DNA of 38,420 nucleotides from positions 1 through 38,420 of the forward strand of contig CAJBLC010000007.1 in NCBI GenBank assembly GCA_903953805.1, written 5' to 3'. The notes beneath the pieces were generated by a model. The model saw only the letters and a program-made list of their open reading frames with translations. It was not told the DNA's origin and made no database searches. A program made the position numbers and the translations under genes. Below, piece by piece: positions 20,316 through 36,082 of this stretch (positions are counted from its first letter, which is position 1; each line of letters begins with the position of its first letter). This stretch comes from an uncultured Actinomycetes bacterium. GTDB lineage: Bacteria > Actinomycetota > Actinomycetes > Nanopelagicales > Nanopelagicaceae.

Positions 20316-22226
20316 CTAATCGATGGTGTAGGGATCAAATCGATACGAGAACGCTTCTTCCTTCTTCGCGATCTTAATTCGCGTGAGGGCTGCGAATAGC
20401 TCAACTATCTCTTGATTGCGTTCTACTGGTATTTTCACGAGAAGACGACCCTTGCCATCTCTACCAGCTTGAAGTCCGTACGCGCTCACCCCCCTCTCCT
20501 CAAGGAGGTCTCTCAAAAGAGTGAGCTCGGAGAAGGAGCCTCCTAATGAAAGTAGACGTGTGAATGGTGGAAGATTGACTCGATTTCGTTCATGCATCTC
20601 GCGAAGCGCGAGGTCATATGCGTTTGACCTCATCAGCCCCTGAGAGACCTCAAGTGAGGATGGCATGGCGAAGAAGATCTCTCCATCATTTTCAAGAAGT
20701 GTGAGCAAGGTAAACCAATGAGCACGGACTTCCTCTTGGCTGCGAAGTTCAATCTGACCATATGCTCGTTCTGCATCTAACACGACAATCGCGGAATAGT
20801 GAGCGATAGGTTCAGATCCAGGCGTCGCTACGACAAGTGTGGGAGACGTTCCAAGCTCGCGAATTTGCTGATCTGCAGATGAGGAAATAACCGTGTAACC
20901 AGGAAATGCTCTTCCAAATTCGGCAGCAGTGCGTTCTGCACCACGGGAGATCGCATACATTTCCTCTGAACTACACCACGCGCAACTCCACGATAGGAAA
21001 TCCTTTAAGCACAAGGCGCAGTGAGGCGCTTTACCTGCCTGAGGAATAACTAAGCGTCCGCCACATTCGCATTCTGCAATATTCCGACACTTTCGACAGA
21101 CGATGCCATTGATGTAACCGGCACGTCCGACAGAGACGAGAACGTGTCCCCTTTTTAACCCCTCGGAAATGATTCGATGTGATGCACTATTCTCCCCTTC
21201 GTTTGCGGAGAATTTCATGCGCTTAATTGATGATTGCGTGAAGTCAAATTGTGTGAACCAACCAAGTTCTACTTGGCGAACCATTTCTACCGAAGGCGAA
21301 CGAGAGATAAAGATTATTGACGAGTCTGCGCTGCGTGTGAGGGCGACATCGCGGGAGTTCCATGTTGGGCTGTGCACCTCATAATTGTGGCGTTCTACAT
21401 CATTGATAATCATCAAAGTATCGCTCTGCTCCAGATGGAGGAACACTCCCGACCGCAAGGTGAGAAAGATTCCAGATTGGGAGAAGTTGGCTGAAAGGTA
21501 CTTCGCAAAGCGTTCGCTCTTGGTCTGATGTGATGAGAGTACAGAGAAAGAAGCACCTGCTTCAGAGAGAGCAACACTCAATGCTTCCAAATCCTTGATA
21601 TCTGGCAGTGCGACTACCACTTTGCCAACACTCGATCGAGACATCGCAATAGCGGCGATTATTGAATAGCTCGGTTGCAGGGTAGGCAAAATCAGAAGAT
21701 CCCTGAGATGGTGCTTGCTCCGAAGGCGACGATTGAGTGCGTCAGGAAGTATCAATCCGAAAAGTGCTATGTCCTCTTCGCTGGGTCCGGCGACTGTTTC
21801 GGACTGTGAAAACCTTGAAAACTTTGTTAATCCGAGCTTTGAATAGGCAGGCGAAAAAGCGGAGAGAAATGACCAGGTGGAGGTCACATACCTCATAGCC
21901 AATTCCCGAGCTAGCGCGATTTGTTGATCAGAGAAGATTCGCATTTCGGAGATGAGTAATGAAATTGGCTTTATTGACCCGTGGTCGGGCCGATCCGAAT
22001 AACGACGAACGATGAGACCATCGGTCTGATGGCTACCAAAGGAGACGGCCACAAGGTGGCCAACATCGCTGCCTTCGCACCCTTGAGGAAGGAAGTAGGT
22101 ATATATCTCTTCCGAGGATAGGTACGGGAGATTAACGAGAACATCAACGTAAGGCCGATCCTCAATCATGACCGGCCGAGGAGAACTCTTCTCAGACTTC
22201 AATGTGAGTGGCTTTACCTTCGCCAC
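20316..22226 (-). CDS. priA: primosome protein PriA, actinobacterial form lacking helicase motifs
   Basis: PriA normally reloads the replicative helicase at stalled forks. The 636-residue protein keeps the N-terminal DNA-binding domain (PYVDVLVNLPYLSSEE...) and the zinc-binding cysteine cluster CRKCRNIAECECGG...CALC...CAWC. The ATPase core is degenerate: no Walker A GxTGSGKT is found where expected, and the DEEH position reads INDVERHNYEVH. This loss is known in actinobacterial PriA, annotated as a probable inactive helicase. It may keep a structural or loading role. The start is GTG, 6 bp after metK, matching the metK-priA order elsewhere. Confidence 0.92.
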   Translation of the reverse strand: MAKVKPLTLKSEKSSPRPVMIEDRPYVDVLVNLPYLSSEEIYTYFLPQGCEGSDVGHLVAVSFGSHQTDGLIVRRYSDRPDHGSIKPISLLISEMRIFSDQQIALARELAMRYVTSTWSFLSAFSPAYSKLGLTKFSRFSQSETVAGPSEEDIALFGLILPDALNRRLRSKHHLRDLLILPTLQPSYSIIAAIAMSRSSVGKVVVALPDIKDLEALSVALSEAGASFSVLSSHQTKSERFAKYLSANFSQSGIFLTLRSGVFLHLEQSDTLMIINDVERHNYEVHSPTWNSRDVALTRSADSSIIFISRSPSVEMVRQVELGWFTQFDFTQSSIKRMKFSANEGENSASHRIISEGLKRGHVLVSVGRAGYINGIVCRKCRNIAECECGGRLVIPQAGKAPHCALCLKDFLSWSCAWCSSEEMYAISRGAERTAAEFGRAFPGYTVISSSADQQIRELGTSPTLVVATPGSEPIAHYSAIVVLDAERAYGQIELRSQEEVRAHWFTLLTLLENDGEIFFAMPSSLEVSQGLMRSNAYDLALREMHERNRVNLPPFTRLLSLGGSFSELTLLRDLLEERGVSAYGLQAGRDGKGRLLVKIPVERNQEIVELFAALTRIKIAKKEEAFSYRFDPYTID

Positions 22227-24630: not shown

Positions 24631-24912
24631 TTAAGCGGTAGCTTCTTGAGCTTTAGGCTCGAGGTTTTCAATGGTTAGGAGACCTTCATTGATCTCGCGC
24701 AACGCAATTGAGAGCGGCTTCTCATGAACATATGTCTCCACAAGTGGGCCAACATATTCAAGGAGTCCTTCGCCGAGCTGTGAGTAGTAGGCATTGATCT
24801 GACGGGCGCGCTTGGCTGCGTAGAGCACGAGGCTATATTTTGAACCTGCCTTGTCGAGAAGCTCATCGATCGGTGGATTTGTGATGCCATCCATGTTAGT
24901 CATTGAGCTCAT
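24631..24912 (-). CDS. rpoZ: DNA-directed RNA polymerase omega subunit
   Basis: Omega helps assemble and stabilise RNA polymerase. The protein contains [28 protein letters not shown], the recognisable omega N-terminal half. The longer actinobacterial-type middle region has [24 protein letters not shown] place the start at the ATG at 24912, which has AGAGG 5 nt upstream; the ORF-track start at 24927 lies upstream of that site. This gives 93 residues. It follows gmk by 54 bp, as in Mycobacterium (Rv1389-Rv1390). Confidence 0.96.
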
Positions 24913-24966
24913 AGTTGCCTCTTTCATCTTGATAAAACCTGAAAAATAAAGCTTCGGCCACGTGGG

Positions 24967-25836
24967 CTAAGTCGCTAAGGATACCAGTTCCTCAATTACC
25001 CGTTCGACGGAGTCATTGACCAGTACGTGGTCGAACTCGCCTGCCGCAGCCATCTCTTGCTCAGCCAGTGCCAATCGGGCTGCCTGGCGTTCAGGCGAAT
25101 CGGTCCCTCGCCCTGTGAGTCGAGCCTTCAATTCATCCCAGCTGGGAGGCGCGATAAAGACCAATAAGGCGTTGGGATCGCTCTTTCGAACCTGACGGGC
25201 TCCCTCAATTTCAATCTCTAGCAGAACATTCTTACCCAGGGCGAGCCAACTCTCGATAGGTGCGTGTGGGGTCCCATAGCGAGCCCCAGCAAACTCTGCC
25301 CACTCTAAGAAGGAGCCATCAGCGATCGATTGATCAAACTTCGAATCGTTATAAAAATAGTAATCAATCCCGTCTCGCTCCCCCTCACGAGGGTCGCGAG
25401 TTGTCGCTGAAACTGAGATCCAGAATCGGGGATCATTTCGAAGGGTTCGCGTAATCGTGCTCTTACCTACGCCACCAGGCCCAGACATCACAATGAGAGT
25501 TCCACGAGCCGGATCGATCTTCGACACTGATAACTCCCCTCTCAACGCTGACACTTGATTAGTACCTAGACCAGCAATCCGTCTCGTGGGAGAGATCTTC
25601 GCTCTCTCCATGATTGCTTCCGCTCGAAGTTTACCCACACCAGGTACGGACTCAAGCAATTCACGAACTCGCATCTTCCGTATCGCAGGATCTACGGAGT
25701 TGATGAGATCGAAAATGCTGATCTCCCCATTCCCCAGTGACTTCTTTGCTGCCGCTCGAACTTGCCGAGCTGCTATTGCCGCACTATTTGCTGCTGCTCG
25801 CTCTGCTGGTGAGAGTTTAGGCGGAAGTGGCGTCAT
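24967..25836 (-). CDS. gmk: mIHF-guanylate kinase fusion protein
   Basis: A single uninterrupted frame of about 289 residues encodes two complete proteins. Residues about 5-103 are the actinobacterial integration host factor mIHF, with an N-terminal alanine/arginine helix, the H2TH DNA-binding segment LLESVPGVGKLRAEAIM and the C-terminal SPTRRIAGLGTNQVSAL. Residues about 108-289 are guanylate kinase, with P-loop GPGGVGKST (119-127), SVSATTRDPREGE, YYFYNDSKF and GTPHAPIESW. Gmk makes GDP from GMP; mIHF is an essential nucleoid protein in mycobacteria. In relatives these are adjacent separate genes. I chose ATG at 25836 (GGGAG 7 nt upstream), overlapping pyrF by 20 bp. An internal GTG with a strong ribosome binding site lies at the junction, so free Gmk (186 residues) may also be made. 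Confidence 0.93.
   Translation of the reverse strand: MTPLPPKLSPAERAAANSAAIAARQVRAAAKKSLGNGEISIFDLINSVDPAIRKMRVRELLESVPGVGKLRAEAIMERAKISPTRRIAGLGTNQVSALRGELSVSKIDPARGTLIVMSGPGGVGKSTITRTLRNDPRFWISVSATTRDPREGERDGIDYYFYNDSKFDQSIADGSFLEWAEFAGARYGTPHAPIESWLALGKNVLLEIEIEGARQVRKSDPNALLVFIAPPSWDELKARLTGRGTDSPERQAARLALAEQEMAAAGEFDHVLVNDSVERVIEELVSLAT
25525..25540 (-). promoter_or_regulatory. internal ribosome binding site and GTG at the mIHF/Gmk junction
   Basis: Reading on the minus strand, AGGGGAG is followed by 6 nt (TTATCA) and an in-frame GTG (codon 104 of the fusion). This is one of the best Shine-Dalgarno/start pairs in the window and sits exactly between the two domains. It would start a 186-residue Gmk of normal length. 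The TTA codon just before is one base from TAA, so an ancestral mIHF stop may have been lost here. Confidence 0.6.
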
Positions 25837-26515
25837 CGAGAATCTCCCGAGCCTTTGCACTCATCGCACCGAGACCTTCGCTGTAAAGAGATGTTATTGG
25901 ACGACCTATCACGAGATAGGTTGAACCGGCATTGATTGCATCTCGAGGAGTCATGACTCGATTTTGATCACCGAGGGAACTTCCTGCAGGTCGAACTCCG
26001 GGAGTAATGATGGTTGTCTCTCTACCGATTCGCTCTCTTATCGATGAAACTTCTAAAGGTGAGCAAACGATCGCTCGCGCGCCAGAGTCAACAGCAAGTG
26101 AAGCAAGGTTGATGGCGGATTCGAGCGGAGGCTGAGAGTAACCAATCGCGCGGACATTCTCAGCGGTGAGCGAGGTGAGGATTGTTACCGCGGTGATATC
26201 AATCGAAGGAGCAGCGGTAGCCGCGGCAGCGATCATCTCCGATCCACCGGAGGCATGAACGGTAAGAAACTTTGGTTTGATATGCGAGATTGCTTTAGTC
26301 GCACTCGCCACTGTATTTGGAATATCGTGCAATTTGAGATCCAAAAAGAGATCGAATTCACCGGCACTTCGTAACCTCTCGATCCCCTTATCGCCAAAAG
26401 TTAAGAAGAATTCAAGTCCGGCTTTATACGTCTTAATGGATTCATTGGTCGCTTCAATCCATGAGCAAGCAGTATCGAGATTGTCGGTATCTAGGGCAAG
26501 GATCAGTGGATTCAT
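25817..26515 (-). CDS. pyrF: orotidine 5'-phosphate decarboxylase
   Basis: PyrF converts OMP to UMP, the last step of pyrimidine synthesis. The 232-residue TIM barrel shows LALDTDN at the N-terminus and the catalytic signature DLKLHDIPNT near residue 59. The phosphate-binding region GVRPAG...VIGRPIT is near the C-terminus. This is the E. coli-like class rather than the longer mycobacterial type. Its ATG overlaps the pyrD stop by 4 bp and its 3' end overlaps the mIHF-gmk start by 20 bp, tying pyrimidine and guanylate synthesis to one message. Confidence 0.97.
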   Translation of the reverse strand: MNPLILALDTDNLDTACSWIEATNESIKTYKAGLEFFLTFGDKGIERLRSAGEFDLFLDLKLHDIPNTVASATKAISHIKPKFLTVHASGGSEMIAAAATAAPSIDITAVTILTSLTAENVRAIGYSQPPLESAINLASLAVDSGARAIVCSPLEVSSIRERIGRETTIITPGVRPAGSSLGDQNRVMTPRDAINAGSTYLVIGRPITSLYSEGLGAMSAKAREILDDATSA

Positions 26516-35563: not shown

Positions 35564-36082
35564 ATGGAAAATCCAGATCTTATGAGTGAAAAGGGTGAGC
35601 TCCTCGCGGGGAGTGAGCCAGAGTTGCTTGCCCTCGGTCAATCTCTCCGGAGTATCCGTAAGCAGAAGGGGCTCACCCTTCGAGATATCGAGAGTGATTC
35701 ACAGGGCCGCTGGAAAGCTGTGGTTATTGGCTCATATGAACGTGGTGACCGAGCCTTAACACTGAAGAAGGCGGTTGCGCTCGCCAGGTATTACAACGTT
35801 CCACTCGATCAACTTTTAGGCCTGTCTCAAGCCTCATCCAGCCAATCTGGAGCTCTTTCAATCAATCTGGTAGCCCTTCGAAGGAGCAGTACACAGTTAC
35901 CTGCGGCGCTTACCCGCTTCGCTCAGGAGATTTGTCGACGCCGTTCTGATTGGAACGGGGAAATGCTCTCGCTTCGAACAAGTGATCGAGCCTTCTTGGC
36001 GATTATTCTCGACATTAACGAAGAGAGCCTTGATCGCTGGCTGAATGAGAATGAACTACTACTGAGTGTTCCAACTACTTAG
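35564..36082 (+). CDS. bldD: BldD-like transcriptional regulator with cyclic-di-GMP-binding signature
   Basis: BldD is the master repressor of development in Streptomyces; cyclic di-GMP makes it dimerise on DNA. The 172-residue protein has an XRE-type helix-turn-helix at about 24-87, including the very BldD-like SQGRWKAVVIGSYERGDRA. After a short linker comes a C-terminal domain (about 95-168). That domain keeps the ligand signature as Arg127-Ser-Asp129, eight residues, then Arg138-Thr-Ser-Asp141 (RxD-X8-RxxD). It lies between pyrR and nusB, the Streptomyces position (SCO1488-1490). It diverges from the pyr operon and its stop overlaps that of convergent nusB by 4 bp. Confidence 0.93.
   Translation: MENPDLMSEKGELLAGSEPELLALGQSLRSIRKQKGLTLRDIESDSQGRWKAVVIGSYERGDRALTLKKAVALARYYNVPLDQLLGLSQASSSQSGALSINLVALRRSSTQLPAALTRFAQEICRRRSDWNGEMLSLRTSDRAFLAIILDINEESLDRWLNENELLLSVPTT

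What the first reader, a model, noticed from the sequence alone, without database searches (positions are those of the whole stretch)
24967..25836. Nucleoid protein mIHF fused in frame to guanylate kinase
One open frame encodes a complete actinobacterial IHF (H2TH segment and the C-terminal TRRIAGLG) followed by a complete guanylate kinase with P-loop GPGGVGKST. Only a few residues link them. In Streptomyces and Mycobacterium these are adjacent but separate genes. A DNA-architecture protein tethered to the enzyme that makes GDP could place a nucleotide-metabolism enzyme on the nucleoid, or couple (p)ppGpp/GTP status to chromosome structure. The consequence is inference; the continuous frame is seen directly.
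Basis: partly seen in the sequence, partly recalled or inferred. Interest (0 to 1): 0.82.

Follow-up and report, generated by a model that had tools for sequence, protein, structure and literature searches.

The report
Nucleoid protein fused to guanylate kinase
In a family of tiny-genome freshwater bacteria, the gene for an abundant DNA-packing protein (mIHF) has merged with the gene for the enzyme that makes GDP, and in this species a preserved start signal hidden inside the merged gene probably still lets the cell make the enzyme alone as well.

Summary
Confirmed and extended. The minus-strand ORF 25836..24967 encodes 289 aa: a complete actinobacterial IHF (residues 6-101) followed by a complete guanylate kinase (112-287), about ten residues apart. 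It is not an assembly error. All 21 sampled genomes of the genus and 10 of 16 genera of the family carry it; closed genomes hold exactly one mIHF and one gmk, in the same gene where fused. Six sister genera keep two adjacent genes, often overlapping, or in one frame with only a stop codon before the gmk start. The fused/split state changes at least four times on the tree, including fusions in two distant actinobacterial families.

Start codon and ribosome-binding site are kept above synonymous expectation in this genus and its relatives, but are gone in many Planktophila-like genomes, which must use the fusion. I infer two products here, mIHF-Gmk and free Gmk (~186 aa), and obligate fusion elsewhere. 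Nucleoid tethering of Gmk follows if mIHF still binds DNA; coupling to (p)ppGpp is untested. No paper describing this was found.

The parts
24967..25836 (-). mihF::gmk fusion ORF, 289 aa, ATG 25836, stop 24969-24967
   Evidence: SD-like GGGAG 7 nt before the ATG and 20-nt overlap with pyrF
25534..25821 (-). actinobacterial IHF domain (residues 6-101), with H2TH segment and TRRIAGLG
   Evidence: NF041260 100.1 bits, PF22525 72.1 bits; aligns to 4ITQ and 6TOB
25504..25533 (-). linker, residues 102-111
   Evidence: between the domain hits; lower AF2 confidence there
24976..25503 (-). guanylate kinase domain (residues 112-287); P-loop GPGGVGKST at 25482..25456
   Evidence: TIGR03263 214.9 bits; fold matches M. 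tuberculosis Gmk
25534..25543 (-). internal ribosome-binding site GAGAGGGGAG
   Evidence: conserved above synonymous expectation in the genus
25525..25527 (-). internal GTG (V104), predicted start of free Gmk of about 186 aa
   Evidence: start-codon excess at this column; J/J+1 alternation; position of the gmk start in split relatives
25817..26515 (-). pyrF, upstream neighbour, overlaps the fusion start by 20 nt
   Evidence: Pfam OMPdecase
24631..24927 (-). rpoZ, downstream neighbour
   Evidence: TIGR00690 79.4 bits, cut-off 23.6

Best explanation
A genuine bifunctional gene. Two tightly spaced operon neighbours, mihF and gmk, became one reading frame when the boundary stop was lost in lineages of genome-streamlined freshwater actinobacteria. 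In this genus and its relatives the old gmk ribosome-binding site and start codon are still kept inside the gene, so it most likely makes two proteins: the 289-aa mIHF-Gmk fusion from ATG 25836 and a free Gmk of about 186 aa from GTG 25527. In many Planktophila-like and g3 genomes the inner start is gone and Gmk exists only as the fusion. The fusion should bind DNA through mIHF and carry a working Gmk on the nucleoid; most likely each half does its ancestral job and co-location is tolerated rather than regulatory. Shown: continuous frame, single copy, conservation of both domains, sequence signals of internal initiation. Inferred: the two products, nucleoid location, absence of regulatory coupling.
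For: Both domains complete and over curated cut-offs. Fused in 21/21 genus genomes and ten genera. One mIHF and one gmk over cut-off in the own and 17 single-contig family genomes. Split sisters overlap or abut, some with TAG|ATG in one frame. Internal start codon excess z 4.7, 7.9, 4.0 in three clades and SD strength z -5.6, -3.4, -5.5 against synonymous recoding; V104 and the next codon alternate as start. dN/dS about 0.055 (IHF) and 0.042 (Gmk); key motifs kept. Both domains fold confidently.
Against: No expression or protein data. Three of 21 genus genomes lack a start codon at V104 or the next codon. Another column (residue 287) shows a similar start-codon bias with no known reason, so codon bias can have other causes. 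TTG, common as the inner start in g6 and g4, is a weak start. Relatedness of the sequences was not modelled in the tests.
Confidence: 0.68

Rival explanations
1. Fusion only: the inner ribosome-binding site and start are a decaying relic of the old gene boundary, and all Gmk is made as mIHF-Gmk in this genus too.
For: Many g2 and g3 genomes have no ATG/GTG/TTG in the linker and evidently live with fusion only; f31 and f29 likewise in 19 of 23.
Against: In g1, g4 and g6/g9/g14 wobble positions of the start codon and SD are kept although synonymous sites have diverged strongly, and the start shifts by one codon when lost.
Confidence: 0.2
2. Adaptive tether: the fusion was favoured because Gmk on the nucleoid couples guanylate or (p)ppGpp status to DNA packing.
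For: Recurrent fusion, at least four state changes on the tree, in at least three families; GMK is a (p)ppGpp target in several phyla (PMC6783271).
Against: Close adjacency alone makes repeated fusion easy; sister genera do without it; no effect of one half on the other has been shown; the domain arrangement is not consistently predicted (pTM 0.85 and 0.69).
Confidence: 0.15
3. The fusion is cut after translation into separate mIHF and Gmk.
For: The linker is the least confidently modelled inner segment, as expected of an exposed loop.
Against: No conserved cleavage motif is apparent; linker length and sequence vary freely.
Confidence: 0.07
4. Assembly or sequencing artefact that hides a stop or frameshift.
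For: The window's assembly is a draft (170 contigs, 89% complete, 6.45% contamination).
Against: The same fusion is in 21 of 21 genus genomes and in single-contig genomes of other genera.
Confidence: 0.01

Closest known systems
Actinobacterial integration host factor (Streptomyces sIHF SCO1480, PDB 4ITQ; M. tuberculosis mIHF Rv1388, PDB 6TOB)
   Same: Residues 4-101 align along the whole of sIHF, with H2TH, PGVGK and RR-x-x-GLG motifs
   Different: Normally a free protein of about 105 aa; here its C-terminus runs into Gmk
Bacterial guanylate kinase (M. tuberculosis Gmk Rv1389, PDB 1ZNW, 1S4Q)
   Same: Complete kinase, 48-49% identical in the fold alignment, P-loop and GMP-site residues kept
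   Different: Carries an N-terminal DNA-binding domain; predicted to exist in fused and free forms in this genus
mihF-gmk-rpoZ operon of Mycobacterium and other Actinobacteria
   Same: Same gene order; mihF deletion in M. tuberculosis needed gmk and rpoZ supplied because of polar effects (PMC6155035)
   Different: There the two genes are separate
Bacterial genes with an in-frame internal start that yields a short second protein (known from general knowledge)
   Same: Conserved internal ribosome-binding site plus start codon inside a longer frame
   Different: Here the inner start is the ancestral start of a separate gene captured by fusion; no product has been demonstrated

Membership tests
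Actinobacterial IHF (NF041260 / PF22525) | Profile match over curated cut-off | tested here: met
   100.1 bits vs 60; 72.1 vs 27
Actinobacterial IHF (NF041260 / PF22525) | RR and GxG DNA-binding region conserved | tested here: met
   R85 121/121, R86 115 R + 6 K, G89 and G91 121/121 in fused proteins
Actinobacterial IHF (NF041260 / PF22525) | Binds and bends DNA | not testable with these tools
   needs biochemistry
Guanylate kinase (TIGR03263) | Profile match over equivalog cut-off | tested here: met
   214.9 bits vs 160.45
Guanylate kinase (TIGR03263) | P-loop and GMP-binding residues intact | tested here: met
   fold match to M. tuberculosis Gmk
Guanylate kinase (TIGR03263) | GMP kinase activity | not testable with these tools
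   needs enzyme assay
Gene with in-frame internal translation start | Internal SD and start codon conserved beyond coding constraint | tested here: met
   relatedness not modelled
Gene with in-frame internal translation start | Short protein product observed | not testable with these tools
   needs proteomics or ribosome profiling

The most novel reading that the evidence does not exclude
Self-association of Gmk makes the normally monomeric DNA-bending mIHF into a two-headed nucleoid protein, so that guanylate metabolism and DNA packing are physically one complex; the ratio of fused to free Gmk, set by the internal start, tunes how many mIHF units are paired, and obligate-fusion lineages have locked this in.
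Probability: 0.12. Interest if true: 0.82.

Novelty: new variant of a known kind. Interest (0 to 1): 0.58.

Why it matters
[quoted passage not shown] tuberculosis (PMC6155035), and Gmk is an essential housekeeping enzyme. Merging them ties production of an architectural protein to that of a metabolic enzyme in what is very probably the most abundant group of freshwater Actinobacteria. The family holds split, just-before-fusion, fused-with-inner-start and obligately fused states, a clean natural series for studying how operon neighbours become one protein and whether a metabolic enzyme can sit on the nucleoid.

Tried and rejected
Assembly artefact: rejected by 21 of 21 genus genomes and by single-contig genomes. 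A second free gmk or mIHF elsewhere: none over cut-off in the own or single-contig genomes. Fusion replacing a lost nucleoid protein: one HU gene is present in all nine fused genomes tested and two in split G025; Lsr2 is absent from all ten, split G025 included, so neither simply tracks the fusion. Fixed inter-domain packing: AF2 pTM 0.85 for the window protein but 0.69 for a Planktophila-like one, so not claimed. Promoter or terminator at the junction: no consensus match on the minus strand. Literature: no paper in the held library names a gmk-mIHF fusion. The names of the two other fused families (f31, f29) could not be settled; f31 Gmk groups, with modest support, near Microbacteriaceae Gmk. 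A first attempt at the f31 linker table stopped with an error and was redone.

Full report
OBSERVATION. The frame lies on the minus strand, ATG 25836 to stop 24967, 289 aa. A ribosome-binding site (GGGAG, 7 nt before the ATG) and a 20-nt overlap with pyrF support this start. Residues 6-101 are a full actinobacterial IHF and residues 112-287 a full guanylate kinase, each over curated cut-offs. The surrounding minus-strand genes read, along the plus strand, def, priA-like, metK, coaBC, rpoZ, fusion, pyrF, pyrD, pyrK, carB, carA, pyrC, pyrB, pyrR (Pfam for the nine from priA-like to carB; the others named by eye from ORF translations). In M. [quoted passage not shown]

WHO CARRIES IT. From a search of 201 genomes of the order, 121 fused genes were read directly in ten genera: g1 (the window's own), g2, g3, g4, g6, g9, g10, g12, g14, g16. 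Six genera (g5, g7, g8, g11, g13, g15) have separate adjacent genes. Four single-contig genomes match the published sizes of acI strains in Table 1 of PMC5301498: G003, 1.354 Mb, IMCC25003 (acI-A1); G013, 1.457, IMCC26103 (A4); G015, 1.506, IMCC19121 (A7); G025, 1.552, IMCC26077 (acI-C1). So the order is very probably Nanopelagicales, with the acI-A strains fused and the acI-C strain split; this is an inference from length. The window's genome and 17 single-contig family genomes each hold exactly one H2TH_5 and one gmk over cut-off.

ELSEWHERE. In a search of 395 class genomes, 21 genomes of family f31 (2.8-4.3 Mb) and two of one genus of family f29 also carry a fused frame; both domains are over cut-off in the one example checked from each. 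In the other families read directly the genes are separate, in f4 often in the same frame with one stop between. On a tree of the two domains with the linker left out, the fused/split label needs at least 4 changes. f31 and f29 lie apart from the window's family; inside the family either two fusions, or one fusion and a reversal, fit. Several deep branches of that tree are weakly supported.

HOW IT AROSE. The split sister genera show the starting material. Many g7 and g11 genomes overlap by ATGA or TGATGA. Four g7 genomes have TAG|ATG or TAA|GTG with both genes already in one frame, so one change of the stop would fuse them.

THE INNER START. In the window the junction reads TTG AGA GGG GAG TTA TCA GTG TCG AAG: a ribosome-binding site six bases before a GTG (V104), at about the place of the gmk start in split relatives. 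I tested whether this is more than chance. At the V104 column, GTG or TTG among V/L codons was 9 of 11 (2.5 expected from the clade's codon use) in g1, 20 of 21 (4.8) in g6+g9+g14 and 9 of 14 (2.9) in g4, ranking first or second of 45-55 columns. Anti-SD pairing upstream was -10.99 kcal/mol in g1 against -7.06 +/- 0.70 for synonymous recoding (0 of 300 as low; strongest of 252 columns), with z -3.4 and -5.5 in the other two clades but -0.6 and -0.1 in g2 and g3. When V104 is not a start codon the next codon usually is: 10 of 14 cases, against 1 of 42 when it is (p = 2.8e-7, not corrected for relatedness). By contrast 23 of 44 g2, 10 of 15 g3 and the single g12 genome have no ATG, GTG or TTG in the linker, nor do 19 of 23 in f31/f29; there Gmk can only be made as the fusion, unless a rarer start or proteolysis is used.

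ARE BOTH HALVES WORKING? dN/dS is about 0.055 for IHF and 0.042 for Gmk over 13 close pairs. The arginine pair and GxG of mIHF and the P-loop and GMP-site residues are kept in essentially all 121 fused proteins. AF2 folds both domains confidently (pLDDT 93 and 94) with lower confidence at the linker; pTM is 0.85 for the window protein and 0.69 for a Planktophila-like one, so no common rigid arrangement is claimed.

MECHANISM. Most likely mIHF-Gmk binds DNA through mIHF and carries Gmk with it, while the inner start supplies free Gmk in this genus. Fluorescent and HaloTag fusions of M. smegmatis IHF are functional and sit on the nucleoid (PMC10028186), so a passenger on mIHF is tolerated. GMK is described as a dimer in which the partner subunit decides (p)ppGpp sensitivity (PMC6783271), so fusion could pair mIHF units; whether actinobacterial Gmk dimerises was not tested here.

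NOVELTY. Both domains are known families and fusion of operon neighbours is a known process. The specific architecture, its recurrence and the inner start were not found in the literature library, though NCBIfam already classes its IHF model as a domain model, which hints that curators have seen fusions.

Noticed in passing
L091, L092, L094 (TAG|ATG) and L093 (TAA|GTG): In four genomes of sister genus g7 the mIHF stop sits directly before the gmk start in the same frame: the state one substitution away from fusion.
   Followed up: yes
L145-L148, L150-L166 (f31); L144, L149 (f29): mIHF-Gmk fusions in two other actinobacterial families, with longer linkers and mostly no inner start. Family names not settled.
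   Followed up: partly
fusion alignment, residue 287 (window about 24978-24976): TTG is over-represented at this leucine near the C-terminus in several clades (z up to 7.1), although the window itself has TTA. Reason unknown.
   Followed up: no
20316-22226 (-): PriA-like ORF whose only Pfam match is the 3'-DNA-binding domain; no helicase domain was found.
   Followed up: no
35564-36082 (+): A helix-turn-helix protein resembling BldD by eye, the only plus-strand gene recognised among the nearby minus-strand pyr genes.
   Followed up: no
L057-L060, L063, L065, L066, L075: gmk loci of Microbacteriaceae such as Rhodoluna; the session's mIHF profile found no mIHF in those checked, and the first sequence search found none in L075 either.
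   Followed up: no
G000 and nine relatives: No Lsr2 match in ten genomes of the family, while HU is present in all.
   Followed up: no
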